Of a stretch of 27,881 nucleotides of DNA, positions 1 to 26,701 are shown in pieces. This DNA is from a virus. A model generated the notes under the pieces. The model made no database searches. It was not told the DNA's origin and saw only the letters and a list, made by a program, of their open reading frames with translations. The stretch spans positions 1-27,881 of IMG/VR virus record IMGVR_UViG_3300035698_035288; one strand, written 5' to 3'. The position numbers and the translations under genes are program-made. Each line of letters starts with the position of its first letter. Position 1 is the stretch's first letter.

Positions 1-171
1 GATGTGCGCCGGACCTTGAACCCGCTGTTCGTCGAGGCGCTGATGGGCTGGCCCACCGGGTGGACCGGCTTCGCCTCTGTGGCAACGGCGTGGTCCCCCT
101 GGTTGCAGCGCATGCGCTTCGAACTCTCGCAGCTGAACTGCTGGCCGATGGATGAAGGGGCACCTGCATGA
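1..171 (+). CDS. C-terminal fragment of an upstream phage gene, possibly a DNA (cytosine) methyltransferase
   Basis: Frame 1 is open from the window edge to a TGA at 169-171, giving 56 residues with no start codon, so this is the 3' end of a gene that begins outside. The peptide begins DVRRTLNPLFVEALMGWPTG. A motif of the form LNPxFVExLMGWPxGW is one I associate from memory with the C-termini of phage DNA cytosine methyltransferases. No catalytic motif lies in the visible part, so the assignment rests on that short tail only. The stop overlaps the next gene's start (ATGA), which indicates translational coupling. Confidence 0.45.
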   Translation, partial: DVRRTLNPLFVEALMGWPTGWTGFASVATAWSPWLQRMRFELSQLNCWPMDEGAPA

Positions 172-404
172 AGCAGTCGCGCGCCATGTCGCTGGTCGAG
201 TCCGTTGCCAATGTGATCGTCGGCTACGGCTTCGCTGTGGTCACGCAGATCCTGATCTTCCCCATCTTCGGGCTGCACACGACGCTGGCGCAGAACATGA
301 AGATGGGCGCGGTGTTCACCGTGGTGAGCATCGCTCGCTCGTTCACCCTGCGGAGACTGTTCGAGGCGATCCGTGTTGCGTCGGAAAAGAGAAATCATCA
401 ATAG
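168..404 (+). CDS. DUF7220-type small membrane protein
   Basis: This 78-residue protein has the pattern QSRxMSLVESVANVxVGYG, then a hydrophobic stretch (about residues 20-37), and a second hydrophobic segment near residues 46-58 ending in arginines (RSFTLRRLFEA). This agrees with my recollection of the phage-associated DUF7220 family, small two-segment inner-membrane proteins of unknown function found beside late genes in alphaproteobacterial prophages. The start is the ATG that overlaps the preceding stop, supporting coupling to the upstream gene. No function is known to me. Confidence 0.7.
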   Translation: MKQSRAMSLVESVANVIVGYGFAVVTQILIFPIFGLHTTLAQNMKMGAVFTVVSIARSFTLRRLFEAIRVASEKRNHQ

Positions 405-481
405 CCCGCGTCCATGCGGTGTGGCTTCTGTGTTGTCGCTAACTCATTCAGATCGTATGGTTTCGGAAATTTGACAGTTGA

Positions 482-1303
482 TTGAACTCCGGTTTTGTCG
501 GCCCCAAGCTAAATCGGATCGAGAGTGATTTGTTGAAAAACCTAGACGAGGAAAAGACCGATCAAGATTTGCTTCCGGATGGGTTGGAGGCTCTGCGGCA
601 GGAGCTGAGCCTCACGGATGTGATGGGGCTGATCGAGCGCACTGCGAGATGGGTCGATCCAAAAACCTTCGAGTATCTTCCTGTGTGGTATCCGGAGCAT
701 GCGCGGCGTGTCCTGTTCTACAAGGCGAACTGGTCCGAGCCGCAGATGAACCGCAATCGTCAGACGGGCGTCAGCATCCACAAGTCTGAAGGGAATACGC
801 ACGCGAACAAGGCGCTGACGCTTGCCTTGGGGCTTCGAGCCGCGGAAAGACCGAACTGGTCATGCTGCCATATCTGGGGTGTTGATGATGCCGCCTATCA
901 GATCAGCAATGCCGTAGTGCAGGATCGTCGTTTCTTTTCCTGCGTGGCAAACATGGTTCTTCTTCCGACGCCGCTGAAGGCGTTCACCGACGTCATGCCT
1001 GAAGTGAAGATCATGCTCCGCGTCTGCGCACTTCATCTCTATGGCTGGTCTTGCGACCATGAAGAAGTGGCTGGCATCGCCAAACAAGTTTCGGAATGGG
1101 CTGGCTGGGACGCTTACCCGAAGAGCTGGCCCAAACCGGGGACGGTTTCGCTTCCGCTCGGAACGGCCAAATTTTCCACACGGATCAAGAAAGCCGCCGA
1201 CCGCAGGAAGGCCGCAATTCGCAAGGATCTGGCATCGGCCGGTGCAAATTATCCTCGCGAGGAGGTCGAAAAGGTTCTCAGCTACTGGAATGTTCCGCTC
1301 TGA
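482..1303 (+). CDS. Conserved protein with an HNH-like core, possible nuclease (accessory gene)
   Basis: This is a long open frame (273 residues from the first possible start, a TTG at 482). The start is unsure: the TTG follows an in-frame TGA directly, there is no clear Shine-Dalgarno site, and the first in-frame ATG lies near 620. The central block has the spacing of a beta-beta-alpha metal fold: CCHIWG (His near residue 129), about 25 residues, then FSCVANMVLLPTPLKAFTD, where Asn-x-Val-x-Leu-Pro resembles the second half of HNH nucleases. The final histidine is not evident. The text is visibly less GC-rich than the head genes, and the gene faces the reverse-strand DUF3489 gene, which suggests independent acquisition. 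It could be a restriction-type or homing-like nuclease or a non-catalytic relative. The open frame is secure and the function is inferred. Confidence 0.55.
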   Translation: MNSGFVGPKLNRIESDLLKNLDEEKTDQDLLPDGLEALRQELSLTDVMGLIERTARWVDPKTFEYLPVWYPEHARRVLFYKANWSEPQMNRNRQTGVSIHKSEGNTHANKALTLALGLRAAERPNWSCCHIWGVDDAAYQISNAVVQDRRFFSCVANMVLLPTPLKAFTDVMPEVKIMLRVCALHLYGWSCDHEEVAGIAKQVSEWAGWDAYPKSWPKPGTVSLPLGTAKFSTRIKKAADRRKAAIRKDLASAGANYPREEVEKVLSYWNVPL

Positions 1304-1357: not shown

Positions 1358-1930
1358 TCAGGCCACAGGCAGCTTGTACACGCGCCCCCTATCCTCGATC
1401 TTCTCCGAGGTCACCTCGAGCCCGAGCTTCTTCTTCAGGGCCCCGGCCATCGCGCCGCGCACCGTGTGCGACTGCCAGCCCGTCGCGGCCATGATCTCCT
1501 CGATGGTCGCGCCGTCCGGCGCGCGCAGCATGGCGATCAGCATCGCCTGCTTGGTGCCCTCGCGCGGCGTGCGCGTCTCGGGCGCGGCCTTCGGTTTGGT
1601 GAGGGTGTCCTGCGTGGGCTCCTCGGTCGGCGCGTCCGTCGCGCCTGCAGGCGCGGTGTTCGCGTCCTCGGGCTCGATGCCGATAGCGGCGAGGCCTGCG
1701 TCGGTGGCGATCAGCGTGACGCCGTGGCCGTCGCCGGTCTCGCGCCAGACGGGCTCGCCATTGCGAGTGTTCGCCTCGACCTCTTCGAGGAAACCTTTGG
1801 CGATCATGGTACTGACCACTTTGGTGGCGGCACCGCCGCGCAGGCTGTCGGGTAACGGCAAAGCGATCAGGTCGTCGCGTTGGGATGCGGCGCTGAGGAT
1901 GATCGCCTGGGTGTCGGAAATCTTGGTCAT
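1358..1930 (-). CDS. DUF3489 domain-containing protein, probable DNA-binding regulator
   Basis: The protein has 190 residues. The N-terminal half (KISDTQAIILSAASQR, about residues 3-90) and the C-terminal part (about 125-185, with GTKQAMLIAMLRAPDGATIEE and GWQSHTVRGAM) are joined by a Pro/Thr/Ala/Glu-rich linker. The C-terminal block matches my recollection of DUF3489: a winged-helix-like unit with the signature TGWQxHTVRGxxxGxLKKKLG. Such proteins recur in alphaproteobacterial genomes and prophages near terminase genes. The start ATG has a good AAGGAG site 7-8 bases upstream on the reverse strand. The gene is divergent from the terminase genes and convergent with the HNH-like gene, so a regulatory role at the late-operon boundary is plausible but not shown. 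Confidence 0.8.
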   Translation of the reverse strand: MTKISDTQAIILSAASQRDDLIALPLPDSLRGGAATKVVSTMIAKGFLEEVEANTRNGEPVWRETGDGHGVTLIATDAGLAAIGIEPEDANTAPAGATDAPTEEPTQDTLTKPKAAPETRTPREGTKQAMLIAMLRAPDGATIEEIMAATGWQSHTVRGAMAGALKKKLGLEVTSEKIEDRGRVYKLPVA

Positions 1931-2121: not shown

Positions 2122-2682
2122 ATGCAGGGCATGAGCGAGCGCCAGTACGCCGCGCATGTCGGCTTGTCGCGGGGCGCGATCCAGAAGGCGAAGACGGCCG
2201 AGCGGCTGATCCTCTATCGCGATGGAAGCATCAACGCGGCGGCCAGCGACGCCAAGCGTGCAGAGACGACGGACCCGTCGAAGACCCGCAAACCGCCCAC
2301 GCCGAAGCTGAAACCCGTTCCCGAGGCGGCCGTTACTGCTGTCGGCGACACCTTGCGCGAACAGGGTCTGGCGGTCCCCGCGGTGGGTGGCGGCACGACC
2401 TACCTTCAGGCGAAAACCGCCAACGAGGTGCTGAAGGCGCAGGAGCGGCGCATCCGCCTGCAGAAGCTGAAGGGGGAATTGATCGAGCGGGCGCGGGCGC
2501 TGTCGCTGGTGTTTCGCTTGGCGCGCGAGGTGCGGGACGCATGGGTGAACTGGCCCGCGCGGTCGTCGGCATTGATGGCGGCGGAACTGGGCGTGGAACC
2601 GGCCGCGATGCAGAAGGCCTTGGAAAAACATGTACGCGCCCACCTCGACGAGCTTGCCGAGGTCCGGCCAGACTTCCGGTGA
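2122..2682 (+). CDS. Phage terminase small subunit-like protein (DNA-recognition)
   Basis: The 186-residue protein begins with a helix-turn-helix-like segment (MSERQYAAHVGLSRGAIQKA, residues 4-23). A short basic/proline-rich linker follows (about 52-68), then a charged helix (about 95-125) and a C-terminal helical part. This is the Nu1-like layout of small terminase subunits that bind phage DNA ends and recruit the large subunit. Homologs are often labelled 'elements of external origin'. The ATG at 2122 has a GGAG 6 bases upstream. The gene lies just before the gpA-type large terminase and its 3' end overlaps that gene's first ATG, which supports the role more than sequence alone does. Confidence 0.75.
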   Translation: MQGMSERQYAAHVGLSRGAIQKAKTAERLILYRDGSINAAASDAKRAETTDPSKTRKPPTPKLKPVPEAAVTAVGDTLREQGLAVPAVGGGTTYLQAKTANEVLKAQERRIRLQKLKGELIERARALSLVFRLAREVRDAWVNWPARSSALMAAELGVEPAAMQKALEKHVRAHLDELAEVRPDFR

Positions 2683-4654
2683 CGATGATGGATTGACGGA
2701 CCCCGGATCGTGGTCCGGGGCAAGCTTCGACGGCGCGAGCGAGATCCTGCGCGCCTGGGGTGCTGGCCTCACGCCCGATCCGGATCTGACAGTGTCGCAA
2801 TGGGCGGACCGGCACCGGATGCTCTCGGGCCGCGCCTCGGCCGAGCCCGGGCGATACCGCACGGTGCGCACGCCCTACATGCGCGAGATCATGGACCGGC
2901 TCTCGCCGGGCGATCCGACCCAGCGGATCGTGTTCATGAAGGCCGCGCAGGTCGGGGCGACCGAGGCGGGCAACAACTGGATCGGCTTTGCCATCCACCA
3001 GGCCCCGGGGCCGATGCTGGCGGTCCAGCCGACCGTGGAACTGGCGAAACGTAATTCACGACAACGGATCGATCCGCTGATCGACGAAAGCCCGGAACTG
3101 CGCGAACGGGTCAAACCGGCGCGCTCGCGCGACGCGGGCAATACGATGCTCTCGAAGGAGTTCGCGGGTGGCATCCTGATCATGACGGGCGCGAACTCGG
3201 CCGTCGGGCTGCGCTCGACACCCGCGCGCTATATCTTCCTCGACGAGGTCGATGCCTATCCGGCCTCGGCAGACGAGGAAGGCGACCCGGTCACGTTGGC
3301 GGAGGCACGGTCACTGACCTTCGCCCATCGGCGTAAGGTGTTTCTGGTCTCGACGCCCACAATCCGGGGGCTGAGCCGGATCGAGCGGGAATACGAAGCA
3401 TCGGACCAGCGCCGGTACTTCGTGCCGTGCCCGCATTGTGGCCACGCACAGTGGCTGAAGTTCGACCGGCTGCGCTGGCAGAAGGGCCGCCCGGAGACGG
3501 CGGAATATCACTGCGAGGGCTGCGATCGGCCCATCGCAGAACACTACAAGACGGCGATGCTGGAGGGCGGCGAATGGCGCGCGACCGCCACGGCCACCGA
3601 TCCGACCACGGTCGGGTATCACCTCTCCGCACTCTATTCGCCGATCGGCTGGCTGAGCTGGGAGCGGATCGTGCGGGCATGGGACGCAGCCCAAGGGTCG
3701 GACGAGGCAATCAAGGCGTTCCGCAACACGATCCTTGGCGAGACATGGGTCGAGACCGGCGAAGCGCCCGACTGGCAGCGGTTGGCGGACCAGCGCGAGA
3801 CCTGGAATGCTGGCGCTGTGCCATCAGGCGGTCTGTTCCTGACTGCGGGAGCGGATGTTCAGAAGGATCGCATCGAAGTCGATGTCTGGGCCTGGGGCCG
3901 CGGGCTGGAGAGTTGGCTGATCGATCACCTGGTCATCGAGGGAGGGCCCGGCGACCAGGCGTGCTGGCAGCAGCTGACCAATTTGCTCGGCCAGACATGG
4001 ATGCATGCTTGCGGTCAGAAGATGACGTTGGCACGGCTGGCGATCGATACCGGCTACGAGACAAGTGCTGTGTATGCCTGGTCGCGACAGGTCGGCTTCG
4101 CGCAGGTGGCTCCGGTCAAAGGCGTCGAAGGATTCAACCGGTCCAGCCCGGTCACCGGCCCGACATATGTGGACGCGACCATCGCAGGCAAAAGGCTGCG
4201 GCGCGGGGCCCGGCTTTGGACGGTCGCCACGTCGACCTTCAAGACCGAGACCTATCGCTATTTGCGCCAGGACCGGCCGACGCGGGAGGAAATCGAGGCT
4301 GGGCACCTTTGCCCGCCCGGAACGATCCATCTGCCAAACTGGGCGGACGGCGAGTGGCTGAAGCAATTCACGGCCGAACAACTGATCACGGTCGCTACCC
4401 GCCGCGGCTTCGCCAGGCTCGAATGGCAGAAGCTGCGCGAACGCAATGAAGCTCTGGATTGTCGCGTCTATGCCCGGGCAGCCGCCTGGATATTGGGCGC
4501 TGACCGTTGGTCCGATGCGCGGTGGGCCGATCTGGAAGCACAGGCCGGGATCAAGGCGGTGGACATGGCTGAGGACGGGGCGGGAAACACCATGCCCGCT
4601 TCTCGGCGCGCGGGACCACAGCGGCGAACCGTGCGCTCAAGTTACATGAGGTGA
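2630..4654 (+). CDS. Terminase large subunit, GpA family (packaging ATPase and nuclease)
   Basis: This protein packages DNA into the prohead with an N-terminal ATPase and cuts concatemers with a C-terminal nuclease. From the 2630 start it has 674 residues. Visible elements are a Walker A-like KAAQVGAT (about 104-111), Walker B YIFLDE (201-206), a zinc-finger-like CPHC...CEGC (C267, C270, C295, C298), and an acidic nuclease strand GADVQKDRIEVDVW with D409. Length and order fit the lambda gpA family (PF05876). The start is uncertain. ATG 2630 overlaps the small-subunit gene by 53 bases with a modest GGA site. TTG 2693 would begin after that gene's stop. Conserved sequence begins only near DGASEILRAW, and the residues before it are partly encoded by a palindromic repeat. 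Confidence 0.93.
   Translation: MYAPTSTSLPRSGQTSGDDDGLTDPGSWSGASFDGASEILRAWGAGLTPDPDLTVSQWADRHRMLSGRASAEPGRYRTVRTPYMREIMDRLSPGDPTQRIVFMKAAQVGATEAGNNWIGFAIHQAPGPMLAVQPTVELAKRNSRQRIDPLIDESPELRERVKPARSRDAGNTMLSKEFAGGILIMTGANSAVGLRSTPARYIFLDEVDAYPASADEEGDPVTLAEARSLTFAHRRKVFLVSTPTIRGLSRIEREYEASDQRRYFVPCPHCGHAQWLKFDRLRWQKGRPETAEYHCEGCDRPIAEHYKTAMLEGGEWRATATATDPTTVGYHLSALYSPIGWLSWERIVRAWDAAQGSDEAIKAFRNTILGETWVETGEAPDWQRLADQRETWNAGAVPSGGLFLTAGADVQKDRIEVDVWAWGRGLESWLIDHLVIEGGPGDQACWQQLTNLLGQTWMHACGQKMTLARLAIDTGYETSAVYAWSRQVGFAQVAPVKGVEGFNRSSPVTGPTYVDATIAGKRLRRGARLWTVATSTFKTETYRYLRQDRPTREEIEAGHLCPPGTIHLPNWADGEWLKQFTAEQLITVATRRGFARLEWQKLRERNEALDCRVYARAAAWILGADRWSDARWADLEAQAGIKAVDMAEDGAGNTMPASRRAGPQRRTVRSSYMR
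2701..2720. repeat. Short palindromic repeat inside the 5' end of the large terminase gene
   Basis: CCCCGGA and TCCGGGG are perfect inverted arms around TCGTGG. The unit resembles an abundant intergenic palindrome (CCCCGGATC...TCCGGGG) that I recall from many alphaproteobacterial genomes. It lies where the small terminase gene ends and before the conserved start of the large terminase protein, so it is either translated as DPGSWSG or lies in an untranslated gap, depending on the real start. Confidence 0.5.
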
Positions 4655-16267: not shown

Positions 16268-16861
16268 ATGCGCGAGAAACCGAAGACGATCGTCATTAAA
16301 TTTGTTGAACCGAATGGGCTCACGCATTCTGAAATGACGCTTGAGATTCCAGACACGCTAGGCACTCCCGATGTGCTGCAAGAAATGTTCGAGCGAACCA
16401 CGAACGAGAACATGTGGCGGGAGAAAGCTGGCGAGTTGCTTGCAACGGGAGAATATGATCCGACTTTCCGGCACAAATTCCATACCTACTGGACGGTAGC
16501 TGGACATCACATTCGAGCGCAGATCGACGACGATAAGCGTCTGATATCGTTACTTCGACTGATCCTTCCTCCGTATGTCGGACCTGGCCGCACTCTGTAC
16601 CGCGGGGAAAACCTTGATCGATGGAAATCTGGCAGAATTGGGCTTTGCTGGTCTGACAACATTGAGACCGCCCTGATGTTTGGCCGCGGGCTCAATGCAA
16701 CAGGAGCCGGAGGCGTTCTGCTTCAGTGGCAAGCGTCGAACGACGCAATAATCGCTGGCCCAAGTGCCCACAGCCTCTATCTCGGCGAGAGCGAATATAC
16801 CCTAGACTTATCGGAGACCTCTGAGATCGAGGAAATCCAGCAGTATCCCTCGTCGGGCTGA
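16268..16861 (+). CDS. Putative ADP-ribosyltransferase-like protein, accessory gene in the tail-tip block
   Basis: The 197-residue protein is not a known tail component. Its C-terminal half resembles the R-S-E class of ADP-ribosyltransferase folds. TLYRGENL contains Arg112. GLCWSDNIETALMFGRG has Ser129 at the Ser-Thr-Ser position, followed by the A-x-x-F helix. GVLLQWQ and DAIIAGP form strands, and LGESEYTLD supplies an E-x-E pair (Glu174, Glu176). The N-terminal 100 residues have no match I recognise. Base composition is clearly less GC-rich than the genes on both sides, and the gene separates two genes that are normally adjacent, so it is an insertion. ATG 16268 has only a poor A-rich ribosome site. 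The fold assignment is inference from motifs; a host-modifying enzyme, toxin or superinfection-exclusion factor are all possible. Confidence 0.5.
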   Translation: MREKPKTIVIKFVEPNGLTHSEMTLEIPDTLGTPDVLQEMFERTTNENMWREKAGELLATGEYDPTFRHKFHTYWTVAGHHIRAQIDDDKRLISLLRLILPPYVGPGRTLYRGENLDRWKSGRIGLCWSDNIETALMFGRGLNATGAGGVLLQWQASNDAIIAGPSAHSLYLGESEYTLDLSETSEIEEIQQYPSSG

Positions 16862-25432: not shown

Positions 25433-26701
25433 TCATTTTACAACCGGCAGGTCCGAAAGTCGTGTTGTGTAGCGCGGGCTGCGGTAATCCGCACGCAAGT
25501 GCCAGGACCGCGTCATGCCTTCACTGGCCAGCACCATGGTTTTCTTTCCGAAACGGGCGTTCACCGCATCCAGCGCTGTCATCAGCGCCGGTGACCTCTG
25601 CGGCACATCGAAAAGTGTTCTGGGCCGATTTTCCAACGGCAGAAGATCATCCAGCATCACGCCCGCCTTGGTAAAGGCATAAAGCTTGTCCCCAGTTTTT
25701 GGCCAAGCGGCTAAGGCGCACCGCCTTGCAGCAGCAACCAGATCAAATGTGTCTGATGACATCGGCGTGAGCCTCGTGGTCCTGGATCCAGCATACTGGG
25801 GTCTATCCGCGCGGTGCCGGTTGGTGTGGTAAAATACTGTCAACGTACCAGCTACCAGCCCATGCTGACGGAGTTTTTCTGCCGCCCTTGTGGCATGGGC
25901 TGTAATGGCTTGAAACAGCGTATCAAAATCCTGCATCGGCGTGCCAGCTGAGCGAGATACGGCCATGCCCTTCCTTTGGGGCTCGACATCATCAAACGCA
26001 ATGCAGGGCTCTCCCTGCAACTCCAGGACAGTCCGCTCCAGAACCACAGTGCCCATGCCCCGCGCCTGACGGAGGGGCATGGCGCGAAGTTCTGCGGCAG
26101 AATTGATGCCGATCCCCTTCAGCTTGGCCTCAGTTTTGCGCCCGATCCCCCAGATATCACCAACAGGGACCAGAGGCAGAAGCCAATCAGCCAGGGTTGG
26201 ATCCATCATATCCAGAACGCCGCTGAATATCGGGTTCTTTTTGGCAATATCATTGGCGCACTTTGCAAGCGTCTTTGTGGGAGCGATGCCGACCCGGACC
26301 GGTACACCCACTCGTCGCAGCACTTCACGCCGCATGGCCTGTGCGTGGGCAACGCGATCCTTCAATCCGGCAAAGTCGAGAAAGCATTCATCGATGGAGT
26401 AGATTTCGACATTTGGTGCGTAGTCTTCGTAAACAGCAACAACACGGCGGCTGATGTCACCGTAGAGCGTGTAGTTTGAGGAAAAGACCCGGATCCCATG
26501 CGCCGCGATCTTGTCGCGGATCAGATGCAGGGGTTGTCCCATCTTGATACCAAGCGCCTTGGCCTCGTCACTGCGCGCCACAGCGCAGCCATCATTATTT
26601 GACAGTACGATAACTGGCACGCCCATCAGCGTTGGATCAAAGATCCGTTCTGCGCTGACATAGAAGTTCGCGCTGTCGCTGATTGCTATGGGCCGCGTCA
26701 C
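25433..26701 (-). CDS. umuC: UmuC, catalytic subunit of translesion DNA polymerase V
   Basis: This Y-family polymerase copies past DNA lesions after SOS induction. The 422-residue length matches UmuC. Motifs are [17 protein letters not shown] with catalytic Asp9 (the more usual text is DCNNFYASCE), [28 protein letters not shown] with Asp104 and Glu105, and [18 protein letters not shown]; the helix-hairpin-helix-like region [20 protein letters not shown] follows. The little-finger and C-terminal regions appear complete. The start overlaps umuD by 4 bases (ATGA), so the two are one operon. It is less GC-rich than the neighbouring phage genes. Confidence 0.95.

What the first reader, a model, noticed from the sequence alone, without database searches (positions are those of the whole stretch)
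482..1303. Lower-GC gene with an HNH-like core upstream of the packaging module
The segment CCHIWG...ANMVLLPTPLKAFTD has the spacing of a beta-beta-alpha metal nuclease, but the last histidine is missing and no family name comes to mind. It lies among small phage genes beside a possible methyltransferase end and a DUF3489 regulator, a place where accessory or defence genes often lie.
Basis: partly seen in the sequence, partly recalled or inferred. Interest (0 to 1): 0.5.

Follow-up and report, generated by a model that had tools for sequence, protein, structure and literature searches.

The report
Uncatalogued HNH-like gene carried by phages
A bacterial virus carries, in an optional cargo site beside its DNA-packaging genes, a strongly conserved gene of an uncatalogued family that looks like a DNA-cutting enzyme with a reduced active site and that elsewhere often sits near bacterial anti-virus systems, so it is a candidate new defence gene, not yet tested.

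Summary
The ORF is real, conserved and under purifying selection (dN/dS 0.05-0.09). It probably starts at TTG530 (257 aa). No Pfam, NCBIfam or PADLOC model and no related PDB sequence was found; the one PHROG row has E 0.11. A second AlphaFold2 model (pLDDT 75) has strand(His)-strand(Asn)-helix order, but no fold match, and profile comparison with HNH_2 is only suggestive. So: HNH-like, membership unproven. The gene sits in a cargo slot between DUF7220 and DUF3489: of 118 distinct slots in related phages, 45 are empty, 14 hold this gene, 59 hold 200 bp or more of something else, toxins among it. Outside this cassette 8 of 28 homologues lie within 2.2 kb of a Gabija, Shedu, short-Argonaute or restriction-modification component, against 0 of 20 random stretches (that control holds three matches to broad 'mads' models). 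Best reading: mobile, self-contained anti-phage nuclease; the linked methyltransferases are not a dedicated partner.

The parts
530..1303 (+). HNH-like cargo gene, 257 aa, most likely start TTG530 (open frame from TTG482)
866..871 (+). Cys129-His130: proposed general-base histidine in the first strand
   Evidence: His 11 of 11, Cys 10 of 11 in the superfamily alignment; strand 86-92 of the model
923..925 (+). Asp148, invariant in the superfamily; candidate metal ligand
   Evidence: 11 of 11; role is inference
950..952 (+). Asn157, proposed metal-binding Asn at the second strand
   Evidence: 11 of 11; strand 116-122 of the model
977..979 (+). Lys166, position of the third (last) His of HNH_2; not conserved
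   Evidence: register; Ala or other in distant rows
989..991 (+). Asp170, invariant, aligned with the Asp of the HNH_2 'FD' end
433..461 (+). promoter-like element TTGTCG-N17-TATGGT in front of the cargo gene
   Evidence: TTG[TC]CG-N17-TATGGT in 13 of 19 cassette copies and 0 of 12 outside; 8 of 12 consensus positions, not called by the consensus scan; a TTGACA-N16-TTTTGT further on scores 9 in the window alone
168..404 (+). DUF7220 gene, left border of the cargo slot
1358..1930 (-). DUF3489 gene, right border of the cargo slot
2122..2682 (+). terminase small subunit
   Evidence: phrog_57
2630..4654 (+). terminase large subunit (GpA)
1..170 (+). tail of a C5 cytosine methyltransferase region

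Best explanation
The gene is phage cargo: a self-contained unit that comes and goes in a slot between DUF7220 and DUF3489, and that also occurs on plasmids and in chromosomal loci near defence genes. It encodes a stand-alone protein with a beta-beta-alpha-metal (HNH-like) core whose active site uses His130 as general base and Asn157, probably with Asp148 or Asp170, to hold a metal ion, without the third histidine. It most likely cuts DNA of competing phages or mobile elements for the benefit of the lysogen or plasmid host. Shown: family, invariance, purifying selection, slot behaviour, neighbourhood. Inferred: fold membership, metal, catalysis, target, and how self DNA is spared.
For: His, Asn and two Asp in 11 of 11 aligned superfamily rows. 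AlphaFold2 model, pLDDT 74.9 and pTM 0.75, has a strand with the His, a strand with the Asn, then a helix. hhalign against 31 HNH_2 domains puts His on His, Asn on Asn, Asp on Asp; 3 of 200 column shuffles score as high. dN/dS 0.05-0.09. Slot: of 118 distinct stretches, 45 empty, 14 with this gene, 59 with 200 bp or more of something else; occupants include a DarT1 relative (E 5.9e-23), a ParE/RelE-type toxin (E 1.4e-9), and by sight a classical HNH, a VapC-like and a GIY-YIG-like gene. Outside the cassette, 8 of 28 homologues have a defence component (PADLOC E <= 1e-10) within 2.2 kb: GajB, with GajA next to it (L044), SduA (L051), DUF4365-APAZ with short pAgo (L030, L053; in L055 only the first part, in two frames), type IIG (L056, L057), type I MTase (L068). 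Two more come within 3 kb: L048 (type III MTase at 2.7 kb, weak REase at 0.5 kb, E 2.3e-9) and L052 (type IIG at 3.0 kb). None of these systems occurs in 20 random stretches: p 0.008, or 0.04 after merging near-identical loci.
Against: No HNH profile hits it. Foldseek and VIA-align find no similar fold. hhalign gives a probability of only 1.5%, and the window family alone does not beat shuffles against HNH_2 (62 of 200). PADLOC itself does not know the protein. The random control holds three member matches to the 'mads' models; if each is counted as defence, 8 of 28 against 3 of 20 is not significant (p 0.23). That control is mostly core genome, so part of the enrichment may only say that the gene is accessory. 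18 of 28 non-cassette loci showed no known defence component within 3 kb in what I scanned.
Confidence: 0.45

Rival explanations
1. Same cargo and defence role, but the domain is not HNH: an unrelated fold whose His, Asp and Asn form a different active or binding site (for example a Cys/His metal site or a DNA sensor).
For: No HNH hit in any library and no fold match; invariant residues beyond an HNH core, Asn105, Asp148, Tyr187, Tyr212, Trp216; Cys128, Cys129 and Cys154 invariant or at least 90% in the 41 rows of A6.
Against: Register of H, N and D with HNH_2 and strand-strand-helix order.
Confidence: 0.27
2. Packaging-associated HNH that helps terminase, as HK97 gp74 does (recalled).
For: The gene ends 0.8 kb upstream of TerS, and this order is kept in 23 of 28 viral loci.
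Against: 45 of 118 distinct slots of related terminase modules are empty and 59 hold something else; homologues 80-81% identical lie outside the cassette beside Gabija (L044) and a type III RM locus (L048); others on plasmids.
Confidence: 0.07
3. Restriction half of a restriction-modification pair with the phage's C5 methyltransferase.
For: C5 MTase adjacent in 7 of 10 scorable slots with the gene against 28 of 79 without (p 0.045).
Against: Not found next to the gene in 3 of 10; frequent without it; an N6/N4 MTase is nearby in 87 of 89 scorable slots whatever the occupant; no constant MTase outside the phage.
Confidence: 0.08
4. Counter-defence: the protein helps its element survive host restriction or other defence.
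For: Found on plasmids and phages; two of 96 scanned neighbour ORFs carry an ArdC N-terminal domain.
Against: It also lies in a chromosomal locus beside a Gabija pair; antirestriction does not need an enzyme-like invariant core (inference).
Confidence: 0.13

Closest known systems
HNH_2 (PF13391) and the beta-beta-alpha-metal nucleases
   Same: H...N...D in the same order and, from Asn on, the same gapless register (NGLALSGTVHWMFD against NMVLLPTPLKAFTD); strand-strand-helix order in the model
   Different: No HMM hit; third His replaced by Lys/Ala; Cys before the His in 10 of 11 rows; 27 residues from His to Asn against 14 in the HNH_2 row L139 (16-17 in the distant relatives); invariant Asp148
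I-PpoI, Serratia nuclease and Cas9-HNH type active sites (recalled)
   Same: General-base His plus an Asn metal ligand without the last His of classical HNH
   Different: No detectable sequence or fold match here; only the two-residue logic is shared
Prophage defence hotspots of P2-like phages (PMC9122126; search listing and start of abstract seen)
   Same: A fixed place in a temperate phage with exchangeable accessory genes
   Different: Different phage group, different borders (DUF7220/DUF3489 by the terminase), no tested defence activity
Single-gene nuclease defence, Shedu (SduA)
   Same: Stand-alone gene near other defence genes; SduA lies 105 bp upstream of the homologue in L051
   Different: Unrelated sequence; SduA is a PD-(D/E)XK nuclease (recalled)

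Membership tests
HNH / beta-beta-alpha-metal nucleases | Recognised by HNH family models | tested here: not met
   No HNH model for the window protein nor for four relatives (Pfam)
HNH / beta-beta-alpha-metal nucleases | Conserved general-base His and metal-site Asn | tested here: met
   His130 and Asn157 in 11 of 11 aligned rows; His invariant and Asn at least 90% in A6, 41 rows
HNH / beta-beta-alpha-metal nucleases | Third metal-binding residue (His, Asp or Asn) on the helix | tested here: not met
   Lys166 or Ala/other at that place; some bona fide members also lack it (recalled)
HNH / beta-beta-alpha-metal nucleases | Beta-beta-alpha fold | tested here: inconclusive
   Strand 86-92, strand 116-122, helix 125-131 in a pLDDT 75 model, but no Foldseek or VIA match and no coordinates to measure
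HNH_2 (PF13391) | Profile-level similarity | tested here: inconclusive
   hhalign score 15.2, probability 1.5%, 3 of 200 shuffles as high for all rows; five distant rows alone 6 of 200; window family alone 62 of 200
Restriction-modification | Dedicated linked methyltransferase | tested here: not met
Phage moron (autonomous cargo gene) | Absent at the same place in related phages | tested here: met
   45 of 118 distinct slots empty, 59 with other contents
Phage moron (autonomous cargo gene) | Own promoter and terminator | tested here: inconclusive
   Promoter-like element in 13 of 19 cassette copies, not called by the scan; a G+C hairpin after the gene is seen by eye but no terminator was called there
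Known anti-phage system | Hit in PADLOC-DB | tested here: not met
Known anti-phage system | Protects cells from phage | not testable with these tools
   needs a plating assay

The most novel reading that the evidence does not exclude
A new stand-alone anti-phage nuclease family, spread mostly among alphaproteobacterial phages, plasmids and defence loci (and seen in an acidobacterium), with a two-residue His/Asn beta-beta-alpha active site completed by an invariant Asp instead of the third His.
Probability: 0.31. Interest if true: 0.66.

Novelty: new variant of a known kind. Interest (0 to 1): 0.5.

Why it matters
The family is under strong selection and in several genomes sits beside Gabija, Shedu, short-Argonaute or restriction systems, yet none of the four family libraries searched names it. 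If it is a defence nuclease it adds a single-gene system with a reduced active site. The phage slot between DUF7220 and DUF3489, easy to find by its borders, would then be a ready source of further toxin and defence genes in these phages.

Tried and rejected
First AlphaFold2 job (20 rows, full length) gave pLDDT 44 and was dropped. Foldseek against PDB and viral models, and VIA-align on 62 chains, gave nothing usable; the top viral row, an HNH endonuclease of phage Bcep22, has E 0.98 and TM 0.19 and is not evidence. PDB sequence searches with A3 and A4 found no nuclease. Viral scans with the Tistrella-type, Phenylobacterium-type, L085-type and A4 queries found no relatives; a profile scan led by L082/L031 returned only contigs already found. 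Genome sampling with A3 gave 5 of 385 (class), 1 of 299 (phylum) and 2 of 149 (phylum of the acidobacterium), centre genomes included and with only part of each genome's first-look candidates scored, so these are lower bounds. RM-pair, packaging and counter-defence readings were weighed and ranked lower. The tree does not place the window row with support; its group statistic counted only the labelled rows. Rows dropped: duplicates before alignments; 43 of 139 neighbour ORFs left out of A2 by hand, some examined later; of the 113 PADLOC models only the first 25 were shown, so the count of defence neighbours may be low. The slot set kept the best 80 of 581 TerS and the best 80 of 345 DUF7220 loci; my script added L002, L005, L011, L015 and L016, of which L011, L015 and L016 came in only because they carry the gene: without them 11 of 115 slots hold it. 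The class 'other' rests on a gap of 200 bp or more; in at least one (L225) the gap is a partly aligned DUF3489, so 59 is an upper figure. Papers: PMC9122126, PMC10810196 and the other papers were seen as search listing with start of abstract only; none was opened.

Full report
WHAT IS THERE. The ORF 482-1303(+) is open from TTG482. Among the 28 viral-contig homologues, L002 has no start upstream of the codon that matches TTG530. The gene is therefore most likely 530-1303, 257 aa. Its GC (56.5%) is below that of DUF3489, TerS, TerL and portal; DUF7220 is at 58.6%. It lies after a DUF7220 gene (168-404) and before a DUF3489 gene on the other strand, followed by TerS and the GpA-type TerL. The only row for it at E <= 1 was one PHROG of unknown function at E 0.11; four unrelated PDB chains have E above 1; Pfam, NCBIfam and PADLOC gave none.

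FAMILY. Homologues: 28 loci in viral contigs (57-100% identical), 39 in species-representative genomes (56-85%), mostly named as Alphaproteobacteria or unclassified Pseudomonadota and one as an acidobacterium (Silvibacterium), and three plasmids (67, 46 and 26%). Some viral and genome loci are the same DNA. L070 is broken inside the frame and L071 ends with its contig. More distant relatives were found by profile in single genomes (L084, L085, L086) and on the Tistrella and Methylorubrum megaplasmids. The distant profile A4 finds the window family back at E 1e-11 to 1e-14, so the kinship is real. Purifying selection is strong: dN/dS 0.047-0.087 in the six comparisons with finite dS; one more pair was saturated and one had another length.

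RESIDUES. In the alignment of 11 rows, His130, Asn157, Asp148, Asp170, Asn105, Pro60, Pro162, Ala111, Leu165, Leu179, Tyr187, Tyr212 and Trp216 are the same in 11 of 11. Cys129 is Asn in one row. The third-His place, Lys166, is Ala or another residue in distant rows.

IS IT HNH? For: register. From Asn on, the family aligns without a gap to HNH_2 (N-M-V-L-L-P-T-P-L-K-A-F-T-D against N-G-L-A-L-S-G-T-V-H-W-M-F-D). hhalign of 31 family rows (some of them near-identical) against 31 HNH_2 domains puts His on His, Asn on Asn and Asp on Asp; 3 of 200 column shuffles reach its score, and its stated probability is only 1.5%; the five distant rows alone give the same register with 6 of 200; the 26 near rows alone do not (62 of 200). 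The second AlphaFold2 model (41 rows, window 602-1150, pLDDT 74.9, pTM 0.75) has strand 86-92 with His (residue 90 of the model), strand 116-122 with Asn (117) and helix 125-131. I had no coordinates, so I could not measure whether the residues meet. Against: no HMM hit, no PDB sequence relative, no fold match. I call it HNH-like and do not file it as HNH. That a His/Asn pair can suffice in beta-beta-alpha nucleases (I-PpoI, Serratia nuclease) is recalled, not from a call.

THE SLOT. In 23 of 28 viral loci and 12 of 39 genome loci the order DUF7220 - this gene - DUF3489 - TerS is kept; two more genome loci are cut by contig ends. To see whether the gene belongs to the phage core, I collected loci by TerS and by DUF7220. 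Of 163 loci examined, 136 hold both markers in order, 118 of them with distinct sequence: 45 have under 200 bp between DUF7220 and DUF3489 (typically 60 bp), 14 hold this gene (11 of 115 without three loci that I added because they carry it), 59 have 200 bp or more of something else, at least one of these an alignment artefact. Other occupants: a DarT1 relative, a ParE-type toxin with a Phd-like partner by sight, a classical HNH (weak PDB match, E 0.042; motif by sight), and by sight only VapC-like, GIY-YIG-like, methyltransferase, SMR transporter and transposase genes. This is a cargo slot. A promoter-like TTG[TC]CG-N17-TATGGT stands before the gene in 13 of 19 cassette copies and 0 of 12 others; a near variant (TTCACG-N17-TATGGT) stands before the non-cassette copy L047. 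It scores 8 of 12 against consensus and is not called by the scan.

NEIGHBOURS OUTSIDE THE SLOT. In 28 loci outside the cassette (25 genome loci and three plasmids) no neighbour family is constant. Several have defence components: CoiA-like gene upstream and DUF4365-APAZ plus short pAgo downstream (L030, L053; in L055 DUF4365-APAZ lies in two frames and the contig then ends), SduA with an HNH_2 gene further on (L051), GajB, GajA and a DrmMI/type IIG-like gene (L044), type III MTase and a weakly matched REase (L048), type IIG enzyme (L056, L057 and, 3 kb away, L052), type I MTase (L068). At PADLOC E <= 1e-10 and within 2.2 kb this makes 8 of 28, and 10 of 28 within 3 kb with L048 and L052 (distances). 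Twenty 5.1-kb stretches from eight genomes that carry the gene (six of them among the 28) gave in 83 ORFs only three matches to two 'mads' models and none of the systems above; 96 neighbour ORFs, some of them from the phage loci L024-L027, gave 113 models. Fisher p is 0.008, 0.04 after merging near-identical loci, and 0.23 if each 'mads' match counts as a defence stretch. The control is mostly core genome, so this shows accessory, defence-rich surroundings, not function. Copies 80-81% identical to the window's lie beside Gabija (L044) and type III RM (L048), so close relatives of the phage gene live in such loci.

METHYLTRANSFERASES. The phage's C5 MTase is next to DUF7220 in 7 of 10 scorable slots with this gene, 19 of 36 empty and 9 of 43 other; the N6/N4 MTase is near in 87 of 89. 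They are frequent in these phages. A mild link to the C5 enzyme (p 0.045) remains open.

MECHANISM. Most likely a stand-alone nuclease that protects the host of the element from competitors. Steps shown: family, selection, slot, neighbourhood. Steps inferred: metal-dependent cutting by His130/Asn157 with an Asp, DNA as substrate, and self-protection. Short pAgos are associated with APAZ proteins that carry a DUF4365, SMEK or HNH nuclease domain (PMC10810196, start of abstract seen), but here the gene is separate and mostly without a pAgo.

NOVELTY. Searches on HNH with Gabija/Shedu, HNH with missing His, HNH/terminase/prophage/Rhodobacter, SPARDA/HNH, prophage hotspots, DUF3489 (one paper) and prophage HNH defence showed, in the rows listed, no title or abstract start that describes this family; I opened none of the papers. 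Verdict: new variant of a known kind, interest 0.5.

Noticed in passing
window 1-170; L040:6454-7648; L002:3496-4684: The C5 methyltransferase gene upstream looks coded in two overlapping frames: the catalytic motifs and a 'GNGVVPLVAAHALRTLA' end lie in one frame, while 'WPTP..' repeats and 'NPLFVEALMGWPTGWT' lie in another, both kept in the two phages looked at. Possible dual-frame gene or programmed frameshift.
   Followed up: partly
slot between DUF7220 and DUF3489 in related phages (L170-L327): A cargo slot with a DarT1-type toxin (L273), ParE-type toxin (L233 and others), classical HNH (L238), VapC-like (L281), GIY-YIG-like (L270) and many unknown genes; a source of new toxin or defence genes.
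   Followed up: partly
L051:5111-7896: An HNH_2 gene and a Shedu SduA gene upstream of the homologue in Mesorhizobium.
   Followed up: partly
L030:6023-11576, L053: CoiA-like gene, this gene, DUF4365-APAZ and short pAgo in a row on the same strand: possibly an extended short-Argonaute locus.
   Followed up: partly
window 25433-26701 (-): Y-family DNA polymerase (DNA polymerase IV relatives in PDB, E 4.8e-20).
   Followed up: no
window 16268-16861 (+): 197-aa ORF in the lowest-GC stretch of the window (about 50-56%), no PDB relative at E 0.1.
   Followed up: no
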